A DNA stretch of 64,000 bases. Origin: Mesobacillus persicus. GTDB taxonomy: Bacteria > Bacillota > Bacilli > Bacillales > Cytobacillaceae. Both the position numbers and the translations under genes were made by a program. The notes beneath the pieces were generated by a model that ran no database searches, had not been told where the DNA came from, and saw nothing but the letters and a program-made list of their open reading frames with translations. The stretch's first letter is position 1; each line of letters starts with the position of its first letter. Shown piece after piece: positions 4,117-54,909 of this stretch. The DNA lies in contig NZ_FOBW01000008.1 of assembly GCF_900109925.1 (NCBI RefSeq), positions 1 to 64,000 of the forward strand, in the 5' to 3' direction.

Positions 4117-4276
4117 TATAATATACTTAATTACAACAGAAATTAAAAAAGGACCGAACATGCCGAACATGTCCAGTCCAGCAATAGACGGTTCCCTTAA
4201 GGGGAACGGCTACTTGTGTAGGAATAATCCACCTGAGCCGCTAACTCAAGGGTGGATTATTTTTTATGGTTAAATG
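4117..4276 (+). ncRNA. Orphan copy of the type I antitoxin-like RNA
   Basis: This is copy 1 of the repeat also found at 42.95 and 54.31 kb. It keeps the TATAAT box (4117-4122), the GGACCGAACATG hairpin (4151-4179) and the + strand terminator (arms 4223-4233 and 4251-4261, then T6). The -35 region, TTG-type in the other copies, is degenerate. Right after the terminator the sequence jumps to ATGGTTAAATG, which in the full copies lies inside the toxin gene, so the toxin has been lost by an internal deletion. Confidence 0.65.
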
Positions 4277-18365: not shown

Positions 18366-19901
18366 ACGCTCCATTCCGAATGGTATAATGATCCATAGAT
18401 AAAACTGTACGGAAATGTGGTGAACGATTTGACAGGTGTTAATTCAAAGCAAGAAGAACAAAACGAACGTATCATACGATTACTAGAGCAACAACTAGCC
18501 CAGTCAAATCGACAAATAGAAGCATTGACTGAACAAGTACGCCAATTAACCAAAGCTTTATATGGTTCTAAATCAGAAAAATCAAAGTATCAAGCACCAG
18601 ACGGTCAAGGATCTTTATTTGAAGACGATCCGTCTTTTAGCGATTCTGAGCAGACAGAAGAACAAAGCACGGAAACCATCAGCTATACCGTTATCCGTAA
18701 AATAGCGAAGAAAAAGAGAAACGATTCATTTAGCAATAATATTGAAATAGAAGAAATTCATCATCATCCAGCTAATACACAATGTGAATGTTGTCTCCAT
18801 CAAATGACAGAGGTAGGGAAAACAGTAATACGAGAAGAGGCAAAATTCATTCCAGCTACAATGAAGCGAGTGCAACATATCGAGCATGCCTATGAGTGCA
18901 AGGCATGCAAAAAAGATACCACTCAAAAAGCACAAATTAAGCGAGGGAAAGCTCCACAAGCTGCCATTCAGCGTAGTATTGCAGGACCAACTGTTTTGGC
19001 AAAGCTTATCTACGATAAGTTTATTCAGTACTTGCCTCTTTACCGTCAGGTGAAAGAGTGGGAACGATATGGTCTACTTACAAATGATAAGAACCTATCT
19101 AACTGGGTTATTCGCGCTGCCGAAGATTGGCTTCAACCAATTTATGATTTGATGAAACAATTATTAACAGCCAAATCAGTGCTCCATGTGGACGAAACCT
19201 ATGCACAAATTATTAAACGTTCCGACGGGAAATCCGGGCAATCGAACGCTTATAATTGGGTTTGTCGTAGCGTACCAAGCCAAGGCCCTATTATTGTCGT
19301 TTTCAAAAGTGCCTTATCTAGAAGTCGAGCTGTATTAGAAGATTTGATAGCCGGGTTCAAAGGAACTGTGATTTGCGATGGTTATTCAGCTTACGGTCAT
19401 TTACCTGACGTAAAGTTCGCCAACTGCTGGGCGCACACGAGGCGTTATTGGCTAAAGGCTGATAGTAAAAACGGGCGAATAGGCGTCGATTACTGCGACA
19501 GGTTATATCAGATTGAGCGTAAAATTAAACACCTTTCATCAGAAGAACGCCAACAAATGAGACAAAAAGAATCGAAGCCCATCGTAGATGAATTCTTCGC
19601 TTGGATTGATCGCTCACCGTTCTTCGGTAAAAATGCATTGGCGAAAGCAGCCGAATATACATTGAGCCGAGCTGATGGATTAAAAGCATTTCTTGATGAT
19701 GGGCATTTAGAAATCGATAATAATCCCGCTGAAAATGCGATTCGTCCGAATGTGATTGGTCGCAATTATGTTCAGTTACAAATTATGCTTAGTCTCCTCC
19801 TCTTCTAACTAGATAATGCAACAGCCAAAAAACCTAGCGAAAATTGATTAGAAATTCACTTAACATAAATTTTTTGCGCTATAATGTAAGAGGGTGATAT
19901 C

Positions 19902-21107
19902 GTGGAAACTGATCAATTGTTTGAAGATATTGCTAAGTTTAAGGATTTTTTGAAAAGGGATTATAAGCCTTCCACCATCGATAGGTATTCCAAAGCATTA
20001 TTTCAATTTCTAAAGTGGAGAAATGCCAAAACTTCAAATGACATGGAATTAAAGTCTTCTATTATGGACTATTTGAATCCCCAAAATCACTTCTGCATAA
20101 TTGACTTAAATAATGTTCGTCCTGCTTTACATCTCTACTATTTTCTTATTTCTGGAACCAAATTTAAATCCATCCAAACCATCCAGAACGAATCTATTGA
20201 ATTAGAAGTAACCGAATATGTGACCTACTTATCAAAAGTTGTCGGACTAACAGATTCTACGCAAATATCCCACAAGAACTTCTTAAAAAGATTTTTTTAC
20301 TATCTCTCTCCCAATCAAAGATTTGATTCCTCAATGTTAACTGTTGATTCAGTTCAAAATTACTTTGCTAATGAGTTAAAGCACCTAAAACCATCATCCA
20401 AAAAAAGAGTTATTGGAATATTAAGAAGCTACATCCGATATCTACGATTTAAAGGATTTGAAATTGACTCTGGGTTATTTGCTCTTCCTTTGCACACGCC
20501 AGTATGGAAACTTTCCAATGTCCCAAATACATTTGAAAAAGAAGATATCAATATTATCCTATCTTCCTATGATCTTACTTCATTAGTTGGAATAAGGGAT
20601 TATGCTATAGCTTTATGCTTTACTGAGTTGGGTTTACGTACATCAGAAGTAGCTTCTTTAACCCTTGATGATTTCAACTGGCATGAAGGGAAACTATTAG
20701 TTAAAAAGACAAAAACACATAAAGAAAGGGAACTCCCACTTCCTAAAAAAATAGGAGAAGCTATCGTGATATATCTTCAAATTTCACGACCAAAAACATC
20801 AAGTCGTACATTATTTGTTCGGTTTTCTCATCAATGCGGTGAACCTATGGGACGAGAACAAATTAGAGGAACTATACGGCGTGCATATGCTAGAGCTGGC
20901 ATTTCCCTGTCAATTACCGGCACCCATATCCTTCGACATTCTAAAGCGAGATTTCTATATGAAGAAGGTTCGAGTTTAAAAATAATTGCTGATATTCTCG
21001 GACATGAATCAATTGATACTACTGTAATATACACAAAAGTAGGTCGATCCGCTCTCCAATGTGTGGTTTGCCCTTGGCCTGAAACAATCTGTTTGGAGGA
21101 GGGCTAA
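19902..21107 (+). CDS. Tyrosine recombinase, first of RIT trio (RitA)
   Basis: 401 aa, GTG start after GAGGGTG. N-terminal SAM-like core-binding domain(s), then the catalytic domain with the full set: Arg in ELGLRTSEVASL, Lys in KKTKTHKERELP, H-x-x-R in THILRHSKARF, His in LGHESIDTT and nucleophile Tyr in TTVIYTKV. It should be catalytically competent. Stop codon is 3 bp before the second recombinase gene. Confidence 0.92.
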   Translation: METDQLFEDIAKFKDFLKRDYKPSTIDRYSKALFQFLKWRNAKTSNDMELKSSIMDYLNPQNHFCIIDLNNVRPALHLYYFLISGTKFKSIQTIQNESIELEVTEYVTYLSKVVGLTDSTQISHKNFLKRFFYYLSPNQRFDSSMLTVDSVQNYFANELKHLKPSSKKRVIGILRSYIRYLRFKGFEIDSGLFALPLHTPVWKLSNVPNTFEKEDINIILSSYDLTSLVGIRDYAIALCFTELGLRTSEVASLTLDDFNWHEGKLLVKKTKTHKERELPLPKKIGEAIVIYLQISRPKTSSRTLFVRFSHQCGEPMGREQIRGTIRRAYARAGISLSITGTHILRHSKARFLYEEGSSLKIIADILGHESIDTTVIYTKVGRSALQCVVCPWPETICLEEG

Positions 21108-21110
21108 AAC

Positions 21111-22082
21111 ATGGACGATACACATCTTATCACAAGCCAAGTAGAGAAATATATCAAATTTAAGCAGAATATGGGGTATCAAATAAAAATAGAATCTCAG
21201 GAACTCAGAAGATTTGCGAAGTTTGCTAGAGAAAACAATCATCAGGGTTCACTTACTATTGACCTAGCCCTCAACTGGGCTTCAGAAAAACCTCAATATA
21301 CAAGTTGGTATAGAGCGAGGAGACTAGAGACTGTCCATGTATTTGCAAAATATGCATTTGCAATAGATGGTAATTCTCAAATACCACCAACAGGAGTTTT
21401 TGGGAAATGCCATGGCCGCGTTGAGCCATACATCTACTCAAATGACGAAGTCATTATACTTATGGATCAAGCAAAAAAGCTAATATCTCCAGACGGTTTA
21501 AGGGCGAAAGCTATTACTACAGCTATTGGATTATTATGGTCAACCGGAATGCGAGTGTGTGAGTTATGCCGATTATTGCGAAATGATTTTGATTTCGATA
21601 AGATGGAAATCCATATTAGAGATACGAAATTTCATAAAGAACGGTATATTCCTATTCATAAAACAGTTATTACTGCATTAAAGCAATATGCAAAATTTCG
21701 AGATAGTTTATATCCAAACAGTGATAATTTCTACTTTTTTCTAACAACTGGTGGAAATGTACTCACACGCAGACATCTTGATTATAATTTTACTTTGCTT
21801 CGTCAATATCTGTTGCCAAACGGGAAAAACTGTTGGGATAGACGTGCACCAAGGCTATACGACCTAAGACATACATTTGCTTGTAATACTATAATTCGTT
21901 GGTATAAAGAAGGTCTTGATATTAATCATAATATATTGTTACTTTCAACGTACCTTGGGCACGTTAAACCGAGTGACACCTATTGGTATTTGACGGGAAC
22001 TCCTGAACTCTTGGCTATAGCTACTAAAAAATTTGAAGACTTTTCCCGTGGTTTCGGGTTGGAGGAAAGCTATGAAAAATAA
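21111..22082 (+). CDS. Tyrosine recombinase, second of RIT trio (RitB)
   Basis: 323 aa; ATG preceded by GGAGGAGGG. Catalytic Arg in STGMRVCELCRLL, Lys in RDTKFHKERYIPI, RLYDLRHTFAC (first His of the HxxR box replaced by Tyr) and LGHVKPSDTYWYLTGTPEL with the nucleophile tyrosine. The altered HxxR box is also seen in other RitB-like recombinases as far as I recall. Overlaps the next gene by 11 bp. Confidence 0.92.
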   Translation: MDDTHLITSQVEKYIKFKQNMGYQIKIESQELRRFAKFARENNHQGSLTIDLALNWASEKPQYTSWYRARRLETVHVFAKYAFAIDGNSQIPPTGVFGKCHGRVEPYIYSNDEVIILMDQAKKLISPDGLRAKAITTAIGLLWSTGMRVCELCRLLRNDFDFDKMEIHIRDTKFHKERYIPIHKTVITALKQYAKFRDSLYPNSDNFYFFLTTGGNVLTRRHLDYNFTLLRQYLLPNGKNCWDRRAPRLYDLRHTFACNTIIRWYKEGLDINHNILLLSTYLGHVKPSDTYWYLTGTPELLAIATKKFEDFSRGFGLEESYEK

Positions 22083-23073
22083 TAGTTTCCAATCACTATT
22101 ACAATGCTTTTTTTTGGACCGACTAATTAAGCAAAAAAATGCATCTGCGTATACAGTAAGTTCATATCGGGATACATTTAGGATATTTCTAAAATTCATG
22201 AAAGAGAAAAAACGATGTAATCCTTCTAAAATAACCATTGAAATGGTTAATGCTGAAACTGTTATTGACTTCTTAAACTACATTGAATCCACAAGAAATA
22301 ATTCCGTTAATACCAGAAATAACCGATTAGCAGCTATACACTCATTTATGGAGTACGTTTCATTTCAAGCTCCTGAGTATTTAGGAATTGCCCAAAGGGT
22401 TATGATGATTCCTTTTAAAAAAACAGAAACAAGAATGGTCGATTACCTTGTTAAGGAAGAAGTAGAATCAATTCTGGAAGTTTGTGACCCAACCTGCTGG
22501 TTGGGTAGACGTGACCGCTTAATGATATCGATTCTTTATAATACTGGTGTAAGGGTTTCGGAATTAGTCTCGATCAAAATAAAGGACGTTGTCCTAAATA
22601 AGAACGGAATAGGGTTAATCCATGTAATAGGAAAAGGACGGAAAGAAAGAACCATACCTTTATGGAAATCAACACAAGAGTATTTGGCAGACTTTATGGG
22701 GGAATCTAGATATTCAAATGAAGATTATTTGTTTAAAAGCAAACAGGGAGAAAATCTTACGCGCTCCGGAGTAGCTTATCGCTTAGATTGTCTGGTTAAA
22801 AAGGCAGCCCTTCGTTGTCCCTCCTTACTTAGAAAACGAGTAACTCCGCATGTTTTTCGACATACAACTGCGATGCACCTATTAGAAGCAGGAGTTGACA
22901 TTTCGACAATAGCTATTTGGCTAGGTCACGAAAGTATTGAAACCACTCACAAATATATGATTGCTGATATTCGGTTAAAGGAAAAAGCATTGGCAAAGGT
23001 TAATGAACCTGTTCTTTCAGAATTCAGATATAGACCTTCTGAAGATATCCTTAATTTTCTTGATAGTTTATAA
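22072..23073 (+). CDS. Tyrosine recombinase, third of RIT trio (RitC)
   Basis: 333 aa from ATG 22072 with GGAGG six bases upstream, inside the end of the preceding gene. Full catalytic set: TGVRVSELVSI, GKGRKERTIPLW, PHVFRHTTAMH, WLGHESIETT and HKYMIAD. Closest in pattern to XerC/D-like integrases. About 100 bp of non-coding sequence and the right inverted repeat follow. Confidence 0.92.
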   Translation: MKNNSFQSLLQCFFLDRLIKQKNASAYTVSSYRDTFRIFLKFMKEKKRCNPSKITIEMVNAETVIDFLNYIESTRNNSVNTRNNRLAAIHSFMEYVSFQAPEYLGIAQRVMMIPFKKTETRMVDYLVKEEVESILEVCDPTCWLGRRDRLMISILYNTGVRVSELVSIKIKDVVLNKNGIGLIHVIGKGRKERTIPLWKSTQEYLADFMGESRYSNEDYLFKSKQGENLTRSGVAYRLDCLVKKAALRCPSLLRKRVTPHVFRHTTAMHLLEAGVDISTIAIWLGHESIETTHKYMIADIRLKEKALAKVNEPVLSEFRYRPSEDILNFLDSL

Positions 23074-29546: not shown

Positions 29547-29604
29547 ATAAAAGTAACAAGAAATTGTGGTTTTCAATGCAAAGCAGACCCAGAAAATACT
29601 GGGT

Positions 29605-30412
29605 CTACTTTGCATTCCGCTCAAAATGTACATGCAACCGATATTCGCATATTTGTTTTGTCCACTCAATCACAAGCTCTTCGTCTTCTGGCAGGACGTC
29701 AAATGTGAATCGGAAGTTTCCATCCTTAAACTCAACAAGGTCGCCTGTCCATTTTGACATTGGCATTGTGGCAATGAGTTTGCTGACGCGCTCTTCATCA
29801 TAGTCCCACAATCTCTTTGAAGATTTATCTGAAAAGCCTATTTGTTTTCGGTACTCTTTTACAATAAGGTACTGGTGAAAGAACGGGGCTACTTGATTTG
29901 GGATAATGGATTTGCACCACTCAGATGGTCCTCGTTCCAGCATCGCAGGAGCACGACCATTTAATAGCTCTTTGCCATTCCCGTCTTTTCAGCATCTTTA
30001 AACCATTCCTCATAAAGGCTATACACTTCTTGCTCTATTTCCTTTAAATCCTCTGCCCATTTTAAAAATCCAAAATAGGTATTAAAATCCTGCCGATACT
30101 GAATGGATTCAGAACCACCTTTTATATGCAATTCCAAGTATGTTGGTCTTCTTCCTAACTCCTGTTTTAAGGAAAAGTAGTCATTGTGTAACTTGTCTTT
30201 ACGCGGGTGTCGCTTCCGGCTCATTTCTTGAATGAGATCTATGACCGTCACATCTAAGTTTACCTCACATAATTCAGGTACAGCTGGTTGGATATTATCT
30301 TTCTTTGATTTCTTTTCAGCCGTATCAAATACCGATTAAATCAAATGGTACAACCAAGCAAGAAGGTTTGGATTAAAATAATCGAGGACCCTTTGATAGG
30401 TGTTCGCCGTAC
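29605..30412 (-). pseudogene. Decayed copy of the PLD/SF2 helicase gene
   Basis: The - strand reads the C-terminal 210 residues of the helicase encoded at 37130-39535 at about 90 % identity (for example HNDYFSLKQELGRRP and SSKRLWDYDEERVSKLIAT), but with a frameshift near 29950, a ~570-bp internal deletion near 30352, and only a 57-bp piece (30356-30412) of the motif II region beyond. Its downstream hairpin also matches that of the intact gene. It is a dead duplicate. Confidence 0.92.
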
Positions 30413-30570
30413 CATAATTTGGGGTTATACTACTATATTCTGATTTAGTCATGGAGAAAGGAAGGGCTTCTTAATAAAGTAAGTTCATGTTTTGTACAAA
30501 AAGAAAAAGCACAATGCCCATCAACCTGATTTAGACACTCTGCTTTTTTATGTTAACCCTTTGATTCATT
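30413..30570. other. Spacer after the GHKL operon
   Basis: Non-coding; separates the pseudogene from the last gene of the GHKL operon. No clear terminator seen. Confidence 0.4.
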
Positions 30571-31338
30571 TTAAACGGGAACTCGATGGTTTAAATTCAA
30601 TTCATCATAATATAAATTTAACGCTTGTAAAACTTCCTGCTTCAAAGATTCAACATCTAACAACGGTGACATAACGACTGGATATTTTTTGTTCAATTCA
30701 AAGATAACCCGTCTGCCGTAACGCTCGTCTTTCCCTAAATCAGGACGGTCCTTGATCTTTTCCTTCATAACATTGGAGATTTGTAACTCTTCTATAATGG
30801 TTAAAATATTCACTAAAAACTCAGCATTACGGAAAATAGCATATTTAATAATATAATTATAGATATCTAGATTTTCCAAGACCAAATTGTAATAGTAATC
30901 TTTCTTATCAGCATCTTCAATTAAATCCTCAATATATTCTGCCGCAAGAACACATTTATAAATATAATTCTCCCAGTCAAACTTCTTAATCACAATGTTT
31001 TCAAATTGTTTTATGTCAGTTTTCACGACAGGGTAATTTTCAAGGATATATTCACGCTTTTTCGTGACCAGTAAAGAGTGCCAAAAGATCTCTTCTAAAT
31101 GAAGATCCCGATCTGTTTGGATATAAGAAGTAGCGATCACTTCAAAAGCCTGTTGAAATCCTAGCCTTTTCTCATCTTCAGAACCCCGTCCCATGTAGAT
31201 AGGAAAATCCGGTGCATCCGCAATCGTAACGATATCATTCGAAAAATAATCTTCATTACTATTAATCTTATCTTCTAAGAAATCCTGATAAAATTGCTCA
31301 TTGTTTTTATAGCCTTTTTTTAATAATCTAATTTCCAT
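30571..31338 (-). CDS. GHKL-operon gene 3, unknown helical protein
   Basis: 255 aa from ATG 31338, with AAGGAGC nine bases upstream inside the end of the previous gene (11-bp overlap). Mainly helical and acidic, without recognised motif; segments such as EEIFWHSLLVTKKREYIL and YYYNLVLENLDIYNYIIKY look like a helical repeat scaffold. It might match the alpha-helical partner proteins (DUF6339-like) seen with paraMORC ATPases, but I cannot confirm this. Last gene of a coupled three-gene operon. Confidence 0.6.
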   Translation of the reverse strand: MEIRLLKKGYKNNEQFYQDFLEDKINSNEDYFSNDIVTIADAPDFPIYMGRGSEDEKRLGFQQAFEVIATSYIQTDRDLHLEEIFWHSLLVTKKREYILENYPVVKTDIKQFENIVIKKFDWENYIYKCVLAAEYIEDLIEDADKKDYYYNLVLENLDIYNYIIKYAIFRNAEFLVNILTIIEELQISNVMKEKIKDRPDLGKDERYGRRVIFELNKKYPVVMSPLLDVESLKQEVLQALNLYYDELNLNHRVPV

Positions 31339-32182
31339 TATTAATAAGCTCCTTAACTGCTCCAGCATATTTTTCAATTATCTTATCCGAAATTAAAGAG
31401 ATGACTTCATCAATGTTATCAACCGAGACTTCTTGAACCATCTTCTTAGTCATTAATTGATATAGCTTAAAATCTAGTAAGTTCTCGGGTTGTGTGATTT
31501 GGGATAAATCAACATAGTCCTCCCCCTGCTCACTATATTCATGAATAAACCGTTGCAACGCGGTACGAAGGCCAGCATAAATATATGGATTATTGAATGC
31601 CTGACTTGAACGTATTCCGGTAAATTGGTAATCTTCTTTTCGATAATGAATAATGATCGTTTCCACACCAAGTTCGATTCGGATATCAGATGTCAATTGT
31701 TCATCTAATTTTTTTTCAAACAGGACTAATGGATTTTGAATACTACCCTCAAAAACAACGATGTTTGAGTAGCCTAATAATGCATGATTCGGAACAGTTA
31801 TTTCATCTTTGAACGCACCATAAAAACTAGTCAAATCATCATTGTCACGAAAGTTTATTTCTTTGTTTGATTGAATATGCAGTTGAATGGAGGTTCTTTT
31901 ACTTAATGAAACTCTTTTCTTAGGCACTGAAACAGCATTTTGGTTTGGATCTAGTTTATAAAACTTATTATCCTTTGACTGGATAATTAAAATCGCTTGC
32001 CCATCACCAGTTGAAATAAGTTTTTTTATAAATGGAGAACTCACCTCGTAATTGACGATAAACCGATAATCATTCGTGTTTTCCTCTAGAGAGACATCCA
32101 GCAAAAAAGAAGGGTCTTCATAACTTGTGGATGTATTTGTTAAAACAGGATAAGGAAAATTGGCATCTTTTTTATAGATCAT
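31328..32182 (-). CDS. GHKL-operon gene 2, unknown protein
   Basis: 284 aa; the ATG overlaps or abuts the stop of the GHKL gene (one base between), ribosome site GAGGTG upstream. The N-terminal two-thirds look beta-rich (DYRFIVNYEVSSPFIKKLI, GDGQAILIIQSKDNKFYKL), the C terminus helical (IDEVISLISDKIIEKYAGA). No family recognised and no nuclease motif that I can defend. Gene order and overlap imply that it forms a complex with the ATPase. Confidence 0.65.
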   Translation of the reverse strand: MIYKKDANFPYPVLTNTSTSYEDPSFLLDVSLEENTNDYRFIVNYEVSSPFIKKLISTGDGQAILIIQSKDNKFYKLDPNQNAVSVPKKRVSLSKRTSIQLHIQSNKEINFRDNDDLTSFYGAFKDEITVPNHALLGYSNIVVFEGSIQNPLVLFEKKLDEQLTSDIRIELGVETIIIHYRKEDYQFTGIRSSQAFNNPYIYAGLRTALQRFIHEYSEQGEDYVDLSQITQPENLLDFKLYQLMTKKMVQEVSVDNIDEVISLISDKIIEKYAGAVKELINNGN

Positions 32183-32183
32183 G

Positions 32184-34103
32184 TTACACCTCTACGTAGT
32201 AAACAAATTTTAGAGCGCGATTATAATTGGGTTTTAAGTCTAGTTTCAATTTTACAATTCCATCTCTAATGGAAACATCTTTAATCGATTCATTTTCAAT
32301 CACACAGCTTGAACCTGAATGTTGGTCAATGACGGCTGAATAATTTTCCTTTAATTTAAACTCATCCTTATATTCTTCTCCCATTCCATCAATCAGGTTA
32401 AAGGATAGATTACAAGAAGTTGTGTTTTTCATTTCTGGAATCTCTTTAAAGTTGAATTGAATAAATTCATGGTTTTTTAAAATTAAACGTTCAACTAGAT
32501 TAGGACTAACACTGTAGATTTCCGCCCCTGATTCTTGTAATTCATCGGCAGTGCCAGTTGGATTATTTCGGCGTGTCCGTTTAACTCCAGTATTTTGTGC
32601 CTTGACGCTCCCTTTTTTGTCACCTTTTTTCTTTGTATTCTTTTTGGTTGTGACATCCGTTGTTTTCACCACTTCTTTGCCTTGGTTAATCTTCACCGCA
32701 CCATACGCATTAGATAAATCTTGCTTGAATTCAGTTTCAATAATATATAAAAGGTCTTTTGTATCCATTACACCATCTGTTGGGTTATTCCTCTTCATTT
32801 CCTCATCAATGATCTTAGCAATTTCCTTGGAGAGATTATTGATGAATCGAGTAGCATGACGTTTTAGAATCGGATCTTTAATATCCTCAGCTGAAATCTT
32901 CGTATGCGATTCATTTTCTAATGATTTTAAATAGCCATCTTCATCTAACCCGCCGATTAAAACTGCATTAAATGGTTTGGTCGCATTTGATTTCACCGCA
33001 AAATCTTCAATTTTCATCCCAATGGTGCGAACGATCGCCACCCGTCCTTTAACGATCGCTTCATCATATTTGAAATAAAGCTTAAATTGATAGTCTTTTT
33101 CACCATTTGACACGACAATGTCTCTTGGTCGTTCGTTTTTATATGTTTTAACATAAAGGGGTGTAAAAACCTTTTTCATTTCGGAAACTTCTTGATTATA
33201 GTAGTGACCACTATTTAGATAGTTTTCAATGGTGTCTGCTGTAATGACATGATCATTAATATGAACTTCCAATCGACGATCTAGAATAGAAATGAAGAAA
33301 CTATCACATACCGTTTTAATAATTTCTTCTTCGCTATCAAATTCTGAACGCAAATACGGAATGATAATCTTTAAACCTCTTGTTTTCTTTTCAAAAACAG
33401 GGTGGAATTCATTTTCATAAGGATAAAACTTTGGTGTAGTATCATCATTCTTTAAATCAGCAAAATAACCTGTTGAACGGTAGCATTGGTCCTCATACAA
33501 GTGTTCAATTAACTGCACTGTCCCTCCTAGATGCTGGTCACCGTGCTCGTCACAGTTAGCAAAATACATCATATGAAGATCAGATGCAGCGTTAGATGCG
33601 ATTTTACCAACACCATGAGACCCTCCGCGTGATGTTTCTATCGTTGAGTCACTTTCCTCAAAATGGACACCTTTGTTATAAGCATAGATTCCCCAAGTGT
33701 CCTTCTTAGAATGACTTTGGCCATTTTTGGCACCGGTCAATCCTTTCGTATTGATATCTTCAAACGAAATGTACCGCACTTCTTCCTGATCAACCCTTTT
33801 GACCATATGCTCAATGGTTTCCTTAGTGTAACTATTTCTGCCTTCGAGACACTTAATCCGATCAATTACATGATTAATGCCAGGAATGTCCTGACGATTA
33901 ATTGATCCGGTATTTATTTTCACAATCACAGGATCCGTGCTATTAGGTAACCGGCCATCCAATGAGTTTTGAAGGTTTTCTTTGGTTAAACCTTGTACGC
34001 CTAACCCATAGAAGCGCTCTAAAATCTTATTAAAATTGGATTCTTCGATGTTTGGAATCGGAGAAAACTTCCATGGACTCGTTTTGGTGGTAACTAAAGT
34101 CAT
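32184..34103 (-). CDS. MORC/MutL-like GHKL ATPase (paraMORC type)
   Basis: 639 aa from ATG 34103 with GAGGTG six bases upstream. A Bergerat-fold ATP site is clear: N-box ENLQNSLDG (Asn46), D-box DINTKGLTG (Asp116) and glycine loop RGGSHGVGKIAS (159-170), followed by a transducer-like domain with GLKIIIPYLRSEF. A basic linker (KKNTKKKGDKKGS then KRTRRNN, about 500-540) leads to a beta-rich C-terminal domain. Spacing fits the prokaryotic MORC relatives found in restriction loci rather than Hsp90, MutL or a histidine kinase. First gene of a three-gene overlapping operon. Likely an ATP-gated DNA clamp or loop-trapping unit; function is inference. Confidence 0.85.
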   Translation of the reverse strand: MTLVTTKTSPWKFSPIPNIEESNFNKILERFYGLGVQGLTKENLQNSLDGRLPNSTDPVIVKINTGSINRQDIPGINHVIDRIKCLEGRNSYTKETIEHMVKRVDQEEVRYISFEDINTKGLTGAKNGQSHSKKDTWGIYAYNKGVHFEESDSTIETSRGGSHGVGKIASNAASDLHMMYFANCDEHGDQHLGGTVQLIEHLYEDQCYRSTGYFADLKNDDTTPKFYPYENEFHPVFEKKTRGLKIIIPYLRSEFDSEEEIIKTVCDSFFISILDRRLEVHINDHVITADTIENYLNSGHYYNQEVSEMKKVFTPLYVKTYKNERPRDIVVSNGEKDYQFKLYFKYDEAIVKGRVAIVRTIGMKIEDFAVKSNATKPFNAVLIGGLDEDGYLKSLENESHTKISAEDIKDPILKRHATRFINNLSKEIAKIIDEEMKRNNPTDGVMDTKDLLYIIETEFKQDLSNAYGAVKINQGKEVVKTTDVTTKKNTKKKGDKKGSVKAQNTGVKRTRRNNPTGTADELQESGAEIYSVSPNLVERLILKNHEFIQFNFKEIPEMKNTTSCNLSFNLIDGMGEEYKDEFKLKENYSAVIDQHSGSSCVIENESIKDVSIRDGIVKLKLDLKPNYNRALKFVYYVEV

Positions 34104-34283: not shown

Positions 34284-34680
34284 CTGTTCCGTATCTAATT
34301 TTTACGGACATAGAAGCCTTTGTAATAATACTTATTCCTTGTTGTTAAAAATAAATAATGCGCTTTCATGAAAAGTCCCCTAATTTTAGTTTCCAAATGC
34401 GCATTAGGAATGGAATCAATCATTCACCTTGGTAGAGCTGAGAGCAACAAAAATACGTTAGCTCCTTACTCCTATGCTAACACTCCTATATAATTACCAA
34501 TCTATTACATTATATTAATATATATAAGTAGTCTGATCAACACTTACGGACTACTAATAACTGGAAGTACTATATTCTCAATACTCAAATACAAAAAAAC
34601 GTTCATAGATTTCTGAACGCTTAGTGTAATAAAAAGCTGAAATTTTACCCTTGATAGTCTAGATTTAGTACTTACCTATT
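34284..34680. repeat. ~380-bp intergenic repeat, copy 1
   Basis: About 80-85 % identical along its length to 36160-36533. Shared landmarks: CCGTATCTAATTTTTAC, ATAATGCGC...GCGCATTAGG (a dyad kept in copy 2 by a G-T pair), AAAAATACGTTAGCTCC and the GTTAGC...GCTAAC hairpin, then a - strand terminator at 34593-34619. No open frame spans it. Confidence 0.8.
34593..34619 (-). terminator. - strand terminator in repeat copy 1
   Basis: On the - strand arms CGTTC and GAACG round an 10-base loop precede T7. No intact gene lies directly upstream of it now. Confidence 0.6.
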
Positions 34681-35330: not shown

Positions 35331-35876
35331 ATGAGCGAACAAACTCGGGAAAACGAATTGAATGCATTTTTTGAAAAAGGGGATTGGGTAAGACCCGATG
35401 GGATAGTAACAGGGAAAGACGATACACACCATGATTTTCTTTGGGATGACCATCATGCGGTACGTAAACACCTAGAAGAAAATCCTAATCATTTTGTTTA
35501 TACACTGCGTGATGAAAGCGGAGGATGGATCAACAAAGGATGGAGGATTTCCAATCGAATCGGACATTTCATATCCCGAGTAGATGTGCCAATGGATGAA
35601 ATGGATGCCGTGATGTACTACCCAGAAGACGAAGAGTTGGATGAAGAAGTGATCGATGAAGGGGCGGAACTTTTAGAACTATTAGGCTATGAGGATGTCG
35701 ATTTTGATTGCTATGAAGAAATGGATGGGCACACGGAAGTATTTTTTGTCGTGACTGATTCACAAGGTCAACAGTGGGGCGTTCAACTTCATAGAATAAA
35801 CGAAGAATATAACCAAAATCTTTATTGGATTCGAAAGTATCCTACGGAGTACGAGTGGAGAGAAGTCAAAAAATAA
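35331..35876 (+). CDS. Acidic cytoplasmic protein, unknown
   Basis: 181 aa with AAGGAGG seven bases before the ATG, a clearly real gene. Very acidic in its middle third (YYPEDEELDEEVIDEGAEL) with conserved-looking WGVQLHRINEEYNQNLYWI near the C terminus. No family recognised. Strong acidity recalls DNA-mimic or immunity proteins (SMI1/KNR4-like immunity proteins share the W-x-x-L pattern), but that is a guess. Flanked by repeat copies on both sides. Confidence 0.65.
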   Translation: MSEQTRENELNAFFEKGDWVRPDGIVTGKDDTHHDFLWDDHHAVRKHLEENPNHFVYTLRDESGGWINKGWRISNRIGHFISRVDVPMDEMDAVMYYPEDEELDEEVIDEGAELLELLGYEDVDFDCYEEMDGHTEVFFVVTDSQGQQWGVQLHRINEEYNQNLYWIRKYPTEYEWREVKK

Positions 35877-36159: not shown

Positions 36160-36533
36160 CTGTCCGTATCTAATTTTTACCAACATAGAAGCCTTTGTAC
36201 AAATATTTTTAACTTAAATAATGCGCTTTAAAGAAAATTCCCCTAATTTTGTTTCAAAATGCGTATTAGGAAAGAATCAATAATTCATCTTGTTGGAGAT
36301 AAGACCAACAAAAATACGTTAGCTCCATACTCCTATGCTAACACTCCTATATAATTACCAATCTACTACATTATATTTATATATATAAGTAATCTAATCA
36401 ACAAATAAGGACTACCAAAAACTGAATGCAATAATCCCTCATACTCAAAAAGCGTTCAGAGATTGCTGAACATTTAGTGTAATAAAAAACTGTAATTTTG
36501 CCCTTTATAGTCCACCTAAGGTACTACCTATCA
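36160..36533. repeat. ~380-bp intergenic repeat, copy 2
   Basis: Second copy of the repeat at 34284-34680. It lies directly downstream of the HIT gene and contains that gene's terminator. Differences to copy 1 are scattered substitutions and short indels. Confidence 0.8.
36447..36471 (-). terminator. Terminator downstream of the HIT gene
   Basis: On the - strand GTTCAG...CTGAAC hairpin followed by GCTTTTT; equivalent to the hairpin at 34593 in repeat copy 1. Confidence 0.6.
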
Positions 36534-36977: not shown

Positions 36978-37129
36978 ATTGAACACCACTTTCCGTGTGT
37001 TTTGGTTCATTGGAATTTACTATATTCTTAACACTAAGTATTTCAAACACTTGCAAATCTAATCTTATAGAGAAATTGTACACTAATTTTTAAGCAGTAA
37101 AAACGAAGAAACCCAGGAAACTCCTGGGT

Positions 37130-39535
37130 CTACCTTGCCTTCCTCTCAAAATGAACATGCAAACGATATTCACAAATTTGTTTTGTCCACTCAAACACAA
37201 GTTCCTCATCTTCTGGTAAAACATCAAAGGTGAATCGAAAAATTCCATCCTTAAACTCAACGAGATACCCTGTCCATTTAGACATCGGCATGGTTGCTAT
37301 GAGTTTGCTGACACGGTCTTCATCATAGTCCCACAATCTTTTTGATGATTTGTCAGAGAAGTCAATGCGTTTGCGGTATTCTTTTTCCGTAAGGTACTGA
37401 TGGAAGAATGGAGCTACCTGATTCGGGGTTATGGCTTTGTACCACTCAGATGGTCCTCGTTCCAGCATTGCCAGGAGTACGACCATTTTGTAGCTCTTTG
37501 TCATTCCTGTCTTTTCAGCATCCTTAAACCACTCTTCATACCGTTCGTATACTTCCTCTTCTCTTTCCGTTAATTCCTCGGTCCATTTTAAGAATCCAAA
37601 ATAAGTATTGAACTCCTGGCGATACTGAACAGATTCGGAACCACCTTTTAAATGCAACTCCAAGTAAGATGGTCTTCTTCCTAACTCCTGTTTTAAAGAG
37701 AAGTAGTCATTGTGTAACTTGTCTCTACGCGGGTGTCGCTTCCGGTTCATTTCTTGAATCAGATCAATGACCGTCACATCTAAGTTGATCTCACAGAGTT
37801 CAGGTACGGCTGGTTGGATATTGTCTTTTTTCGATTTCTTCTCTTCCGTATCAAACAGACTTAACTTAATATCTGCATTCCGATAGTTACCGATTAGATC
37901 AATAATCGTGCAATACTCTTTGTCATCATGAAGTCTCAGACCGCGTCCAATTTGTTGGGTAAAAACGGTCAGCGACTCTGTTGGCCGAACAAATAAGAGC
38001 GTATCAACAGCTGGAATATCGACTCCTTCATTGAAGAGGTCTACGGTAAAGATAATGTCTAGTTCGCCTTTAGCAAGCAGCGAAATCGCCGTGGCTCTGT
38101 TCACTCCTACCTGCTGAGAATTCAGACTAACGGTCTGATAGCCTTGTTGATTAAAATAATTGGATAGAAAATTGGATTGTTTAATTGAAGAGCAGAAACC
38201 TATCGTCCGTGTTTGTTTTCTTTCTTCCCAGGCTTTGAGGATCTTCGCTGCTAAACCCTCTCGTAATTGAGCACGCAACAGCTCTTCTTCATCATAGCGG
38301 TTCCCAAGCCATGTAATCTGGCGGTAATCGGTATCATCGTAAACCCCATAATAGCGAAAAGGAGCCAGCCATCTCCTCTGAATCGCTTCTAGAAAATCTA
38401 AACGAAACGCCACATTCCCATCACAGAGAGCGTAAACATCCTTATTGTCGTTTCGATCAGGTGTTGCTGTAATACCAAGCAAGAACGTTGGAGTAAAATA
38501 ATCGAGCACTCGTTGATAGGTGTTCGCCGCAGCATGATGAAACTCATCAATGATGATTAAATCAAATTCATCAGGTCGAAATCGTTCGATGTGTTTTTTT
38601 AAACTCAGAGTGTATACAGATGCAAATACAGAGTCGGCATCCGCTTCCTTTTGCTTTCCATTATAAATACCATACTTTTTTTCTGGCATAATTTTTTTAA
38701 AAGAATCCCTAGCTTGATACAAGATTTCTTCTCGGTGAGCAATGAATAAAACCCGCTGATAGTTCTGAGCAAAGAAACCCGCCAAATACGTTTTTCCCAA
38801 GCCAGTGGCCATCACCACGAGTGCTTTATTGTACTCTTCTTCTATCGTTTTCTCTAACTCCGCGAGAGCTTCAGGCTGCGCAAACCTCGGTTGTATCTGC
38901 CCATACCCTTCGCTATCTTCATGTACCTCATTTGGTAAATCCCGAGTCTGCGGATCCGTCCTAAGCATCAAATCCAGCTCTTCCGTCTCGGACCACGATT
39001 TCGCAAGATTGGGATTCGAGTGGTGATATTTTTTATATTCTTCTTCATATTGTTTAGCGGTTTCCGCATTAAGACCAATGGTTTGTTCTGATAAAAAGAG
39101 GTTCAAAAACTGGGTTAGTGCTTCATCAAAAACTTCCTCCTCCCCACTAACCGATAAGTTCCACTCTACTCCATGTTTTAAAGCGGATCGGGATAGATTG
39201 GATGAACCAATAAATAAATATTCCTGTTTGTCTGATTGAAACAAATAAGCCTTCGGATGAAAGGATACACCGTTGCTTTTCCAAAGTCGAACCTGGATAC
39301 GGTCATCAATTGAAAGAAGCTCGTTTAACCCTTCAGGCTGAGTGATATACAAATAATCCCCCGTGCAAATCTTGATATCCGCCCCTCTGTCGGCAGCTTG
39401 CTTCAAGGCGTTTTTCATATATTCCACACCCGACTTCATCACAAACGAAGTCAAGATACAGATTGTCGAGGCGGATTCAATTTGTTCAAGCAAATGTTCT
39501 CCTAATTGATGGGTAATTAATTTTACCTTACTCAT
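37130..39535 (-). CDS. PLD-nuclease/SF2 helicase
   Basis: 801 aa; ATG 39535 overlaps the end of the MazG-like gene by 8 bp. PLD-like nuclease domain at the N terminus with SFHPKAYLFQ (H93, K95) and FIGSSNLSRSAL (108-119). SF2 core: Walker A VMATGLGKTYLAG, IIDEFHHAAANTYQRVL, LGITATPDRNDNKD, TVDLFNEGVDIPAVDTLLF and QQIGRGLRLHD. The C-terminal region (about 590-801) is family specific and is duplicated as the pseudogene at 29605-30412. Restriction/defence-type enzyme, probably cutting one strand through the PLD site while translocating. One PLD HxK motif means a dimer is needed for a full active site. Confidence 0.93.
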   Translation of the reverse strand: MSKVKLITHQLGEHLLEQIESASTICILTSFVMKSGVEYMKNALKQAADRGADIKICTGDYLYITQPEGLNELLSIDDRIQVRLWKSNGVSFHPKAYLFQSDKQEYLFIGSSNLSRSALKHGVEWNLSVSGEEEVFDEALTQFLNLFLSEQTIGLNAETAKQYEEEYKKYHHSNPNLAKSWSETEELDLMLRTDPQTRDLPNEVHEDSEGYGQIQPRFAQPEALAELEKTIEEEYNKALVVMATGLGKTYLAGFFAQNYQRVLFIAHREEILYQARDSFKKIMPEKKYGIYNGKQKEADADSVFASVYTLSLKKHIERFRPDEFDLIIIDEFHHAAANTYQRVLDYFTPTFLLGITATPDRNDNKDVYALCDGNVAFRLDFLEAIQRRWLAPFRYYGVYDDTDYRQITWLGNRYDEEELLRAQLREGLAAKILKAWEERKQTRTIGFCSSIKQSNFLSNYFNQQGYQTVSLNSQQVGVNRATAISLLAKGELDIIFTVDLFNEGVDIPAVDTLLFVRPTESLTVFTQQIGRGLRLHDDKEYCTIIDLIGNYRNADIKLSLFDTEEKKSKKDNIQPAVPELCEINLDVTVIDLIQEMNRKRHPRRDKLHNDYFSLKQELGRRPSYLELHLKGGSESVQYRQEFNTYFGFLKWTEELTEREEEVYERYEEWFKDAEKTGMTKSYKMVVLLAMLERGPSEWYKAITPNQVAPFFHQYLTEKEYRKRIDFSDKSSKRLWDYDEDRVSKLIATMPMSKWTGYLVEFKDGIFRFTFDVLPEDEELVFEWTKQICEYRLHVHFERKAR

Positions 39536-39854
39536 CTTCAACCTCAATCAAGAAAATCTTCTCCTTAAAGCCTCCCCGCTTTGCCGCTTTGTTCTTACGT
39601 AACTCTTCGACTTCTTCAATAGAGGAACCATGGGATTCAGCAAGAGCATGGACAATTTCAAGAAGATCAGCAAGTTCTTCGACAGCGTCTTCCTTATTAT
39701 TGGTGTTCATATATTCATCAAGTTCTTCATAGGCCTTTTTGCGTAGTTCAGTTATGTATTCATCGTTTTCTAAAATTTTAGTAGAGAACTTCTTTCCAGT
39801 TTTCTCGATGATTTCTGGGATTCTGTCTCGGACTAGTTTGTTGTATACAGGCAT
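39528..39854 (-). CDS. MazG-like phosphoribosyl-ATP pyrophosphohydrolase family protein
   Basis: 108 aa from ATG 39854 with GGAGG seven bases upstream. MPVYNKLVRDRIPEII and KAYEELDEYMNTNNKEDAVEEL ADLLE carry the all-alpha NTP-PPase acidic signature (E-E-x-x-E ... E-x-x-D). Usually a house-cleaning nucleotide hydrolase. Its stop overlaps the helicase start, so the two are made together; nucleotide hydrolases next to restriction helicases are frequent in defence islands and could alter nucleotide pools on infection (inference). Confidence 0.88.
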   Translation of the reverse strand: MPVYNKLVRDRIPEIIEKTGKKFSTKILENDEYITELRKKAYEELDEYMNTNNKEDAVEELADLLEIVHALAESHGSSIEEVEELRKNKAAKRGGFKEKIFLIEVEDE

Positions 39855-40142
39855 GATAGCTTCCTCCATAATTTGGGTTTATGCCATTATTTTCGCATTT
39901 TGGAACGGAGAAAGAAAGGGTAAATTGGCGATAATAACAACCTTGAGCTGAACTATAGATTATGCTGTTGATTTTCCGTTTAATAAACTGTGAAAAAAGG
40001 AAAAGGGTACGTTCTTGCTATTAGCAGTTTTAAATACTCATAAATAAGATGGGTTATCATTCCTTGTGAATTAACAATGTTTGTTTAATATTTATTTAAT
40101 TATTATTTCTTTGTTTCTCTTTATTTAATAGCTGTCGATTTT
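39855..40142. other. Upstream region of the MazG-helicase operon
   Basis: AT-rich DNA that should contain the operon promoter; no convincing -35/-10 pair was chosen. The tandem repeats at 40143-40198 lie just beyond. Confidence 0.4.
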
Positions 40143-42743: not shown

Positions 42744-42946
42744 GAGAAGTCAAGGGTTTTTGTGTTAATTTCATACGATTTCATGACACTTAATGAGACA
42801 TTACATTTTTTGGAATCTCAGGTTGATGACATTGGGACTGCCCCCACCTTGCCCAACATTCCATACTCTATTTTAAACTTTTCAGGGGTACTTGAAGCAA
42901 GCATAATTCCTCCATTCTTTTTAAAGTCCGTTCAGCACCAATTCAG
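42744..42946. other. Non-coding stretch before TA copy 2
   Basis: No gene with start and ribosome site. GGGACTGCCCCCACCTTGCCC near 42835 resembles a degraded palindrome of the GGGACA type. Confidence 0.4.
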
Positions 42947-43121
42947 TTGTTCTTTTCCTCATCATCCGTTATAATAATATTATTAATAACATAAATTAAA
43001 AAAGGACTGAACATGGGTGAACATGTCCAGTCCAGCAATAGACGGTTCCCACAAAAGGGTCGGCTATTTGAGTAGAGATAATCCACCCGTTGGCGTCAAC
43101 TCAAGGGTGGATTATTTTTTT
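42947..43121 (+). ncRNA. Type I antitoxin-like RNA, copy 2, with its promoter
   Basis: Promoter TTGTTC (42947-42952), 17 bp, TATAAT (42970-42975); start expected near 42982. The ~140-nt RNA begins close to the hairpin GGACTGAACATG...CATGTCCAGTCC (43004-43033) and ends at the terminator with arms ATAATCCACCC (43078-43088) and GGGTGGATTAT (43105-43115) plus T7. It is antisense to the 3' untranslated part of the toxin transcript, as in RatA/TxpA. Confidence 0.75.
42998..43033 (-). terminator. Terminator of toxin mRNA, copy 2
   Basis: Read on the - strand, GGACTGGACATG...CATGTTCAGTCC (one G-T pair) is followed by TTTTTT. The toxin message would therefore overlap the whole + strand RNA. Confidence 0.7.
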
Positions 43122-43218
43122 CCCCACCTTAACAGGCAGTAAGACCCCCAACCTAAAATTTTGAGTAAACAAAGTACATACAGGGGATCAACTGCCTGTA
43201 AAGGTCCGATAAGTGCGA

Positions 43219-43338
43219 CTAACCATCAGTGGGGATAAGGCATCCCACTGATGGAAGTCCTTTATGGTTAAATGACAGGATGGCTACAACCAGACTTGCA
43301 AAAGCGATTGCCATCATTAGTGATTCAAAAACTGTCAT
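43219..43338 (-). CDS. Hol-Tox (BsrG/TxpA-like) toxic membrane peptide, copy 2
   Basis: 39 aa: MTVFESLMMAIAFASLVVA then ILSFNH and a variable tail ending LIPTDG. This is the MTV(F/Y)E(S/A)LM...AF pattern of the putative holin-like toxin family, small hydrophobic peptides that harm the membrane when overproduced. GGGGGTGG lies seven bases before ATG. The 3' coding end forms a hairpin (CCATCAGTGGG...CCCACTGATGG). Product and RNA arrangement identify a type I toxin-antitoxin module. Confidence 0.8.
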   Translation of the reverse strand: MTVFESLMMAIAFASLVVAILSFNHKGLPSVGCLIPTDG

Positions 43339-43738
43339 TCAGCACCACCCCCTTTCTGCTTGGGGATGTGCCGACCACCCTTGAGAAAACCTATTCTATT
43401 GCTTCTTTAGTTTAACATATTTTTACACAAATTAGAACGTACGTTTGTGGGCTTTCAGAAAAATCGGATCTTCGCTTTGCTCCACCGGAGGACAGACCCC
43501 AAATGCCTCAGCCTTCATGGCGAACAGTCCCAGTCACTGTTCGCCATTTTTGTTCCGTCTTTTCATGTGACAAGTCACTGCGGCTTGTCCCATTGAATGT
43601 CCCCTAATTCTCAAGAGGGACACAGGGACAGACACTTTGTCCCTATATAGGTGATTTGCAGAACCAACAAATCGGAGAAAATTTGTGATTTTTAAATGCT
43701 TTGAAAGGTGTATAATAAAAAGTAGCTGAAAGGAGGAA
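43339..43738. other. Intergenic stretch rich in palindromes
   Basis: Holds the toxin leader and promoter (right of 43345), a family A palindrome at 43517-43546 (ATGGCGAACAGT...ACTGTTCGCCAT followed by TTTTTG), a family B-like hairpin at 43568-43590 (GACAAG...CTTGTC) and a GGGACA...TGTCCC hairpin at 43624-43644. No further gene seen. Confidence 0.6.
43517..43546. repeat. Palindrome, family A
   Basis: Perfect 12-bp arms ATGGCGAACAGT and ACTGTTCGCCAT with a 6-base loop, then T5. Confidence 0.75.
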
Positions 43739-54200: not shown

Positions 54201-54314
54201 TAAAGAAACTGCAGAAAACCCTTCTTCCATAAAAATGGAGGGACAGCACCTTGTCCTACCATATAACTCCAATTAGGATGAGAGATCAATCCTGTTGCCG
54301 CCCCATCGACACAG
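54201..54314. other. Spacer before TA copy 3
   Basis: Contains a GGGACAGCACCTTGTCC palindrome remnant at 54241-54258; no gene. Confidence 0.4.
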
Positions 54315-54487
54315 TTGTCCTTTACTTAATCATCCGTTATAATTATTTTATTAACAACATAAAATAAAAAGGACCGAACATGCGGGAACATGTTCAGTCC
54401 AGCAATAGACGGCTCCCTTTAAGGGGGACCGGCTTCTTACAGGGATAATCCACCTGAGCCGCTAACTCAAGGGTGGATTATTTTTTT
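54315..54487 (+). ncRNA. Type I antitoxin-like RNA, copy 3, with its promoter
   Basis: Promoter TTGTCC (54315-54320), 17 bp, TATAAT (54338-54343). Start expected near 54350. Hairpin GGACCGAACATG...CATGTTCAGTCC at 54371-54400 and final terminator with arms ATAATCCACC (54445-54454) and GGTGGATTAT (54472-54481) plus T7. About 90 % identical to copy 1 and copy 2 over this part. Confidence 0.75.
54361..54400 (-). terminator. Terminator of toxin mRNA, copy 3
   Basis: Same hairpin read on the - strand, followed by TTTTTATTTT. Confidence 0.65.
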
Positions 54488-54647
54488 CCCCACCTTAACA
54501 GGCAGTAAGATCCCCAACCTAAAAAATTCTGAGTAACCAAAGAAAATATAGGGATCAACTGCCTGTAAAGGTCCGACAAGATCTTTTCTTAGAGCTTCAG
54601 CTCTTAGAAAAGTCAGTCAGGCTCTGCGTGATAAGTGCGACTAACCA

Positions 54648-54761
54648 TCAGTGGGGATAAGGCCCCCACTGATGGAAGTCTTCTATATGGTTAAATGACA
54701 GAATGGTTACGATTAAACTTCCAAAAGCAATCGCCATCATTAGTGATTCAAAAACTGTCAT
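54648..54761 (-). CDS. Hol-Tox (BsrG/TxpA-like) toxic membrane peptide, copy 3
   Basis: 37 aa: MTVFESLMMAIAFGSLIVT then ILSFNH and a tail ending QWGPYPH. First 25 residues differ from copy 2 in only five places; the tails differ because a one- or two-base indel shifts the frame after SFNH, showing that only the hydrophobic part is under constraint. GGGGGTGG ribosome site as in copy 2. This copy also has a 55-bp insertion (54578-54632) with its own hairpin between toxin and antitoxin. Confidence 0.8.
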   Translation of the reverse strand: MTVFESLMMAIAFGSLIVTILSFNHIEDFHQWGPYPH

Positions 54762-54909
54762 TCAGCACCACCCCCTTTCTGTTTGGGGATGTGCCGACCA
54801 CCCTTGAGAAACCTATTCTATTGCTTCTTTAGTTTAGCATATTTTCCAATAAACAAGAACAAACGTTTGTGCTTTTAAAACATAGGGATGGACAGCAACC
54901 TTGTCACAT

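What the first reader, a model, noticed from the sequence alone, without database searches (positions are those of the whole stretch)
30571..34103. Three-gene operon led by a MORC-like GHKL ATPase
Genes of 639, 284 and 255 aa overlap or abut each other, so they make one complex. The first has N-box, D-box and glycine-loop motifs of a Bergerat ATPase with spacing like prokaryotic MORC relatives, plus a basic linker. The two partners match no family that I know. It lies among PLD helicases, a C5 methylase and McrBC. This is the best candidate in the window for an incompletely described defence system.
Basis: partly seen in the sequence, partly recalled or inferred. Interest (0 to 1): 0.82.

Follow-up and report, generated by a model that had tools for sequence, protein, structure and literature searches.

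The report
Three-gene MORC-like ATPase defence cassette
Three overlapping bacterial genes, headed by an ATPase with the motifs of DNA-clamp enzymes, travel together as one unit through defence-gene islands of Gram-positive bacteria; they look like a divergent version of a catalogued candidate anti-virus system for which no test was found.

Summary
In detail: genes of 639, 284 and 255 aa lie head to tail at 30571-34103 (minus strand), with the motifs and basic linker described. The trio is a real unit: A, B, C follow each other in 58 of 62 loci of the same subfamily (S1) and 37 of 40 of a sister subfamily (S2). Their distances co-vary (A-B rho 0.91, A-C 0.79) but not with the neighbouring PLD helicase (0.01). 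It is not wholly undescribed. A has the ExxxH signature published in 2008 for paraMORC2 ATPases and lacks the MORC motif. S2 matches PADLOC candidate PDC-M33A/B/C, whose C is DUF6339. The window's S1 form is a divergent variant: A and B match PDC-M33A/B, but 0 of 53 S1 C proteins match PDC-M33C, although 25 of 53 weakly match DUF6339. B's model has an Ig/FnIII-like sandwich; C's confident helical model found no PDB match. No nuclease was recognised, so an ATP-gated DNA-binding complex is my best reading. Caveats: GHKL membership rests on motifs (profile comparison was near background); defence is inferred from context.

The parts
32184..34103 (-). Gene A, 639 aa: GHKL-motif ATPase of paraMORC2 type with a basic linker and a C-terminal part of unknown fold
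   Evidence: ORF and start; PADLOC PDC-M33A E 6.5e-56; motifs across 98 sequences
33957..33980 (-). N-box E42-D49 (ENLQNSLD, N46)
   Evidence: pattern in 98 of 98 A sequences
33741..33758 (-). D-box D116-G121 (DINTKG)
   Evidence: strict pattern DxNTxG in 93 of 98
33603..33626 (-). glycine loop G160-K167 (GGSHGVGK)
   Evidence: pattern in 97 of 98
32904..32918 (-). ExxxH motif E396-H400, the published paraMORC2 signature of the S5 region
   Evidence: 98 of 98 A sequences; signature from PMC2292703
32514..32693 (-). basic linker, residues 471-530 of A
   Evidence: 15 K+R, 7 D+E
31328..32182 (-). Gene B, 284 aa: predicted Ig/FnIII-like beta-sandwich plus mixed/helical C-terminal part
   Evidence: PDC-M33B matched by 76 of 76 aligned B proteins at E up to 1, window E 1e-10; AlphaFold2 model pLDDT 89.5, pTM 0.58; Foldseek and VIA
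30571..31338 (-). Gene C, 255 aa: mostly helical, divergent DUF6339-like third subunit (C1 type)
   Evidence: AlphaFold2 model pLDDT 93, pTM 0.88; DUF6339 is the commonest Pfam match in the family, 25 of 53 at E up to 10, best E 1.6e-5, but the window's own C has none

Best explanation
The three genes form a self-contained mobile cassette, most likely anti-phage or anti-plasmid, of the PDC-M33 / paraMORC2 kind. Proposed working: A binds ATP, dimerises through its N-terminal ATPase module and closes like a MutL/MORC clamp on DNA; the basic linker helps to hold DNA; B (beta-sandwich adaptor) and C (helical subunit) bind A and decide which DNA or phage structure triggers closure and what is recruited. 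As only A keeps motif-like polar residues across both subfamilies and no nuclease was recognised, the output is either topological trapping and silencing of the foreign DNA, or recruitment of a nuclease encoded elsewhere. Shown here: gene order, co-inheritance, motifs, the two subfamilies, defence-island context. Inferred from motifs and published classification: ATP hydrolysis, dimerisation, clamp. Pure inference: complex formation, DNA binding, defence, trigger and output.
For: A>B>C in a row on one strand in 58 of 62 S1 and 37 of 40 S2 loci; C1 only in S1, C2 only in S2. S1 gaps inside the trio have medians of 1 and -11 bases, while the next gene downstream is on the other strand or 100 or more bases away in 46 of 56 loci, and upstream in 49 of 57. 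Distance matrices co-vary: A-B rho 0.91, A-C 0.79, 0 of 500 permutations as high. ExxxH 98/98, N-box 98/98, MORC motif 0/98, as published for paraMORC2. PADLOC: A E 6.5e-56, B E 1e-10. Restriction/defence-type clusters in the held stretch of 45 of 62 S1 and 36 of 40 S2 loci, against 0 of 20 control stretches (the list was drawn from the trio's own neighbours). B: 5 columns at 95% or more in 76 sequences, none polar; A: 36 in 98, 13 polar. In S2, C5 methylase cluster in 21 of 40 loci and MutH-type nuclease in 7, the kind of context Iyer et al. describe. Precedent: VcSduA, of paraMORC3-like organisation, restricts phage while the host survives (PMC12137116, passages).
Against: Profile comparison did not detect A's kinship with MutL or MORC: hhalign probabilities 0.3-3.8% against 0.1-0.9% for negative controls and 95.9% for MutL against MORC. 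None of 14 A proteins matches a GHKL family of Pfam (the window's A has only a sub-threshold DUF592 match, E 1.9e-4), and no PDB sequence was found. A itself was not modelled. The link between C1 and DUF6339 is weak (hhalign 4.5%) and may be wrong. C1 has 26 polar columns at 95% or more, so an activity in C is not excluded. The one tested paraMORC-like precedent that I saw has a fused nuclease, which the trio lacks. No phage test of any member was found. Defence-island residence alone does not prove defence.
Confidence: 0.6

Rival explanations
1. The trio is an accessory of a neighbouring restriction-type system, such as the PLD helicase, a C5 methylase or McrBC, and works only with it, as Iyer et al. 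proposed for paraMORCs in restriction-modification operons.
For: PLD-helicase-type cluster in 24 of 62 S1 and methylase cluster in 21 of 40 S2 loci. In four Paenibacillaceae S2 loci (L100, L101, L103, L115) methylase-cluster genes directly flank the trio, and in three of them a HATPase_c_3-type and a Z1-type gene follow.
Against: In S1 no partner is constant. The helicase lies up- or downstream and on either strand, and its distances do not follow A's (rho 0.01, 216 of 500 permutations as high). The methylase cluster is in only 6 of 62 S1 loci.
Confidence: 0.17
2. An abortive-infection device: C (or B) is a toxic effector released or activated by ATP-driven changes of A.
For: C1 is the more constrained partner: 51 columns at 95% or more in 53 sequences, 26 of them polar (Tyr counted), nine Lys or Arg. 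Some C1 proteins carry a C-terminal extension; 6 of 53 C1 proteins match ZorC models (best E 1.1e-6).
Against: No toxin or nuclease family was recognised in C or B over cut-off. C2 of the sister subfamily keeps only 5 such columns in 24 sequences, one of them polar, so no shared active site is visible.
Confidence: 0.13
3. Not defence: a DNA-maintenance, repair or self-preservation function of mobile elements.
For: Matches also in 20 records of the plasmid collection (one of them a 2.6-Mb record), 1 phage record and 6 viral contigs. MutL relatives work in repair.
Against: Restriction/defence neighbourhood and patchy presence: 18 of 193 genomes of the window's family have a match, two of these only short fragments.
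Confidence: 0.1

Closest known systems
PADLOC candidate system PDC-M33 (PDC-M33A/B/C; PADLOC-DB 2.0.0 of 2023)
   Same: Same three gene kinds in the same order; window A matches PDC-M33A (E 6.5e-56) and window B PDC-M33B (E 1e-10); 76 of 76 B proteins match at E up to 1.
   Different: The models fit subfamily S2 (L105: A E 2e-228, C E 1.8e-102). 0 of 53 S1 C proteins match PDC-M33C; S1 and S2 lie on two sides of one branch of the A tree (SH-aLRT 99, quick search). The models carry no description, and 'pdc-m33' is in no paper of the library.
paraMORC2 ATPases (Iyer, Abhiman and Aravind 2008, PMC2292703; abstract and section 3 parts 1-3 of 4 read)
   Same: GHKL-type motifs, ExxxH in the S5 region, lack of the MORC motif, Gram-positive hosts, patchy distribution, restriction-type neighbourhoods.
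   Different: The text read describes operons with helicases, methylases and nucleases and names no partners that I could equate with B or C; figures and supplement were not available. The S1 trio has no constant further partner.
MZA (mzaABCDE; Gao et al. 2020, recalled, and as cited in PMC9523054, passages read)
   Same: A MutL/MORC-like ATPase in a multi-gene system (recalled); AIPR and Z1 genes occur near some trio loci.
   Different: Z1 in 1 and AIPR in 3 of 62 S1 loci; no Mza model matched A, B or C at E up to 1.
VcSduA, a Shedu protein with GHKL domain and paraMORC3-like organisation (PMC12137116; passages read)
   Same: A GHKL ATPase in an experimentally tested anti-phage protein; said to restrict phage while cells survive.
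   Different: There a DUF4263 nuclease is fused to the ATPase; no nuclease domain was recognised in the trio.

Membership tests
paraMORC2 | N-terminal GHKL ATP-binding motifs | tested here: met
   N-box 98/98, D-box 93/98 strict, G-loop 97/98; motif level only
paraMORC2 | conserved ExxxH in the C-terminal part of the S5 domain | tested here: met
   98/98; definition from PMC2292703
paraMORC2 | GHKL + S5 fold | tested here: inconclusive
   hhalign against 30 MutL and 3 MORC-like sequences near background, MutL-MORC control 95.9%; no Pfam GHKL or PDB match; A not modelled
MORC (proper) | GhXhhpXXRhl motif in S5 | tested here: not met
   0/98
PDC-M33 | A component (PDC-M33A model) | tested here: met
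   E 6.5e-56, residues 14-520
PDC-M33 | B component (PDC-M33B model) | tested here: met
   window E 1e-10; 76 of 76 members at E up to 1
PDC-M33 | C component (PDC-M33C models) | tested here: not met
   0 of 53 S1 C proteins at E up to 10, window C included (HMMER's filters drop most weak matches); hence 'variant', not plain member
DUF6339 (PF19866) | Pfam model match of C | tested here: inconclusive
   window C none; 25 of 53 relatives match at E up to 10, best 1.6e-5; hhalign C1-C2 4.5%, E 0.009, nearly full length; 4 of 4 S2 C proteins scanned match at E 1e-44 to 1e-59
MZA | Z1, DUF and AIPR genes in the operon (definition recalled) | tested here: not met
   Z1 in 1 and AIPR in 3 of 62 S1 loci; no Mza model match
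restriction-modification system | own methylase and nuclease | tested here: not met
   methylase cluster in 6 of 62 S1 loci; no nuclease family over cut-off in A, B or C
anti-phage defence system | measured protection against phage | not testable with these tools
   no experiment possible; none found in print in the searches

The most novel reading that the evidence does not exclude
The S1 trio is a nuclease-free and methylase-free immune machine: an ATP-gated MORC-like clamp that recognises incoming phage or plasmid DNA by its structure and topologically traps or compacts it, a bacterial counterpart of eukaryotic MORC silencing of viruses and transposons.
Probability: 0.2. Interest if true: 0.82.

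Novelty: new variant of a known kind. Interest (0 to 1): 0.5.

Why it matters
MORC ATPases silence transposons and endogenous retroviruses in eukaryotes (abstracts in the listing) and were proposed in 2008 to come from bacterial relatives in restriction systems. A paraMORC3-like protein with a fused nuclease has been tested as a defence; in the library searched I found no experiment on a paraMORC2. The S1 cassette is the simplest setting I found: about 3.5 kb, three genes that travel as one, no constant further partner, and at home in Bacillus-type bacteria, where a clean test in a laboratory strain is easy. It would let one ask whether such a clamp can work without a nuclease of its own. It also shows that the 2023 PADLOC models recognise two of the three genes of this subfamily.

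Tried and rejected
MORC proper: rejected for lack of its motif. Named defence family: PADLOC matched A and B only to PDC-M33; NCBIfam and Pfam gave nothing over their cut-offs for A, B or C of the window. Helicase or DUF262 gene as a fourth subunit: rejected for S1 by variable place and strand of the helicase and by lack of clear co-variation (DUF262 rho 0.22, 45 of 500 permutations as high). Catalytic site in B: no polar column at 95% or more; at 90% two tyrosines, Y21 and Y121. Known fold for C: Foldseek gave no match with E under 0.8 in PDB or viral models, VIA no Z of 5 or more (best 4.2, rmsd 3.8, 77 aligned); this does not show that the fold is new. B: one Foldseek match just under 0.001 (6wdp, TM 0.23) and generic Ig/FnIII-like sandwiches in VIA (best Z 7.1, rmsd 2.8, 94 aligned; residues 10-147), so fold class only; its C-terminal half was barely tested. 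GHKL kinship by profile: near background, although in the three MutL comparisons the aligned stretch began at the N-box of both. The MORC-like profile held only 3 sequences because my pattern filter dropped four further loci. The scan of viral contigs with A alone found no relatives; the alignment found 6. Conserved upstream element: upstream stretches of 57 loci were only read by eye, nothing obvious.

Literature: searches found 0 papers, 31 and 32 three each, 38 seven, 93 eight; one search listed 15 of 52 and 15 of 405. Of these I read passages of PMC8011034 (other paraMORC-related proteins, HEF_HK and Response_reg_2), PMC12137116, PMC9523054 and PMC11811056, and most of PMC2292703; the others only as listings. 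No experimental work on this trio was seen; preprints and most subscription papers are outside the library.

Caveats on counts: only the best 80 of 283 relatives of the genome scan were kept, so S1, the query's subfamily, is over-represented. 102 loci were counted (62 S1, 40 S2) after dropping six (L025, L026, L027, L028, L030, L032) that repeat genomes already held; L040 has no recognised A. L029 and L108 were moved by hand from S2 to S1 (L108 carries C1; L029 is an A fragment 65% identical). The four S1 loci without A>B>C in a row are L029, L081 and L098 (truncated A) and L045 (A split); A is also split in L118 (S2), and C is cut short in L072 and L077, at or near the end of the held stretch. 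'In a locus' means anywhere in the held stretch, mostly up to 10 kb on each side. For the co-variation test L029, L045, L081 and L098 were left out and only helicase ORFs of at least 700 aa were used (20 loci). The control came from nine genomes and was scanned only for the clusters seen around the trio. The cluster names DUF262, HsdM, HsdR, VSR and McrC, and the methylase cluster as a whole, were given by my reading of the sequences, not by a call; representatives of HEL, NERD, MutH, Z1, AIPR, SLFN, UvrD and the DUF2357/AAA_5 pair were checked.

Full report
What is there.

The trio elsewhere. Of 193 genomes of the window's family 18 have a match to A, two of these only short fragments (G143, G113). 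The scan of species genomes gave 322 pattern matches, 283 relatives, of which the best 80 were kept; 6 loci came from viral contigs, and 20 plasmid-collection records and 1 phage record match. Of the loci read (102 after dropping repeats), A>B>C follow each other on one strand in 58 of 62 of the window's subfamily (S1) and 37 of 40 of a second one (S2). The S1 exceptions are three with truncated A and one with a split A. Of the S2 exceptions, L122 does carry B and a C2-like gene that my clustering missed, L125 ends just after A, and L127 has no recognised B. C1 occurs only in S1 and C2 only in S2. On a tree of 97 A proteins the two subfamilies lie on two sides of one branch (SH-aLRT 99; quick search, several long branches).

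One unit, and only three genes. Median gaps inside the S1 trio are 1 and -11 bases; the next downstream gene is on the other strand or at least 100 bases off in 46 of 56 loci, the upstream one in 49 of 57. Protein distances co-vary within the trio (A-B rho 0.91 over 58 loci; A-C 0.79 and B-C 0.81 over 56; 0 of 500 permutations as high). They do not co-vary with the neighbouring PLD helicase (rho 0.01 over 20 loci, 216 of 500 as high) and not clearly with the DUF262 gene (0.22 over 18, 45 of 500). So the helicase found in 24 of 62 S1 loci, and beside the trio in this window, looks like a fellow resident and not a subunit.

Context. Restriction or defence-type clusters lie in the held stretch of 45 of 62 S1 and 36 of 40 S2 loci, and in 0 of 20 stretches of 20 kb taken from elsewhere in nine genomes that hold the trio. 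The list of clusters was drawn from the trio's own neighbours, so this control is generous to the hypothesis. S2 is more tied to restriction: methylase cluster in 21 of 40 against 6 of 62 in S1, MutH-type nuclease in 7 against 0, Z1 in 5 against 1 (Pfam checks of representatives). In four Paenibacillaceae S2 loci methylase-cluster genes directly flank the trio. In this window McrBC-type genes, a C5 methylase, an IS66 transposase, three integrases in a row and several helicase genes lie within 20 kb.

What A is. It matches PDC-M33A of PADLOC. The text of Iyer et al. 2008 (PMC2292703; abstract and section 3 parts 1-3 of 4 read; figures not held) defines paraMORC2 by an ExxxH motif in the S5 region; paraMORC families lack the MORC motif, and paraMORC2 is found mainly in Gram-positives and cyanobacteria. 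ExxxH is in 98 of 98 A sequences and the MORC motif in none. Against this: profile comparison of A with 30 MutL and 3 MORC-like sequences stayed near the negative controls, although MutL and MORC found each other at 95.9%; no GHKL family of Pfam matched any of 14 A proteins and no PDB sequence was found. The ATPase assignment therefore rests on motif content and order and on the published classification.

What B and C are. B: 76 of 76 aligned B proteins match PDC-M33B at E up to 1. The model (pLDDT 89.5, pTM 0.58) has an N-terminal Ig/FnIII-like sandwich; the best matches are generic (Z up to 7.1, rmsd 2.8, 94 aligned). It keeps only 5 columns at 95% or more, none polar, which argues for a scaffold. 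C: the model is confident (pLDDT 93), mostly helical, without a significant PDB or viral match. The four C2 proteins scanned are clearly DUF6339 (E 1e-44 to 1e-59), and the two scanned against PADLOC are PDC-M33C. For C1 the link is weaker: 25 of 53 members match DUF6339 at E up to 10, best 1.6e-5; the next family by number is DUF4538 (18 members, best E 0.072); the window's own C matches none. hhalign C1-C2 gives 4.5% and E 0.009 over nearly the full length. With the identical operon position I take C1 as a divergent DUF6339 relative, not proven. Seven C1 proteins are over 360 aa long; 6 of 53 match ZorC models (best E 1.1e-6), in L054 within the extra C-terminal part.

How it most likely works. 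Shown: order, co-inheritance, motifs, defence context. Inferred: A is an ATP-dependent dimeric clamp like MutL/MORC, B and C are its adaptor subunits, and the output is trapping of foreign DNA or recruitment of a host nuclease, since no nuclease was recognised in the trio. Which of the two, and what the trigger is, the data do not say. C1's many conserved polar residues leave an activity of C open. The one tested relative that I saw, VcSduA of paraMORC3-like organisation, restricts phage with a nuclease fused to the ATPase and without loss of the host cells (PMC12137116, passages); it supports a defence role for paraMORCs, and speaks for nuclease recruitment rather than trapping.

Known or new. 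The kind of A was described in 2008 and the S2 trio is catalogued as candidate PDC-M33. A Bacillus cereus group survey calls PDC systems unpublished candidates (PMC11811056, passages read). Searches for DUF6339, PDC-M33, paraMORC and related terms showed no experimental study of the trio (two of these listed only a part of the papers found); preprints and most subscription journals are not in that library. The S1 form, whose third gene PADLOC does not recognise (0 of 53), is a new variant of this known candidate kind.

Noticed in passing
window 29587-30329 and 37111-37855: The 3' end of the PLD-helicase gene (37130-39547) is present a second time (85% over 745 bases) as a frame-broken copy just downstream of the trio; a further piece matches at 30353-30418 / 38474-38538. 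The trio thus lies between two direct copies.
   Followed up: partly
window 34288-34679 and 36163-36531: A second direct repeat (80% over 392 bases) upstream of the trio, on either side of the 181-aa ORF 35331-35876; with the helicase copies it suggests that the trio entered by duplication or recombination.
   Followed up: no
window 19902-23073: Three tyrosine integrase genes in a row (401, 323, 346 aa), next to an IS66 transposase (18417-19808); looks like a recombinase-in-trio element (name recalled).
   Followed up: no
window 37130-39869 and relatives: A MazG-like gene (39528-39869; weak Pfam match under its cut-off) overlaps the start of the PLD helicase. The gene pair is adjacent on one strand in 12 S1 and 10 S2 loci, of 18 and 11 that hold the MazG-like cluster. 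Possibly a small defence system of its own.
   Followed up: partly
L048, L054, L060, L062, L066, L078, L097 (C gene): C proteins with an extra C-terminal part (over 360 aa in all); 6 of 53 C1 proteins match ZorC models (best E 1.1e-6). The seven loci fall within one clade of nine rows of the A tree.
   Followed up: partly
L100, L103, L115: Paenibacillus S2 loci with the trio between methylase-cluster genes, followed by a HATPase_c_3 (MORC-like) gene and a Z1-cluster gene: two different GHKL-type ATPases in one gene cluster.
   Followed up: partly
window 42944-43449, 54312-54871 and 4100-4265: Dispersed repeats of 82-90% identity elsewhere in the window, not identified.
   Followed up: no
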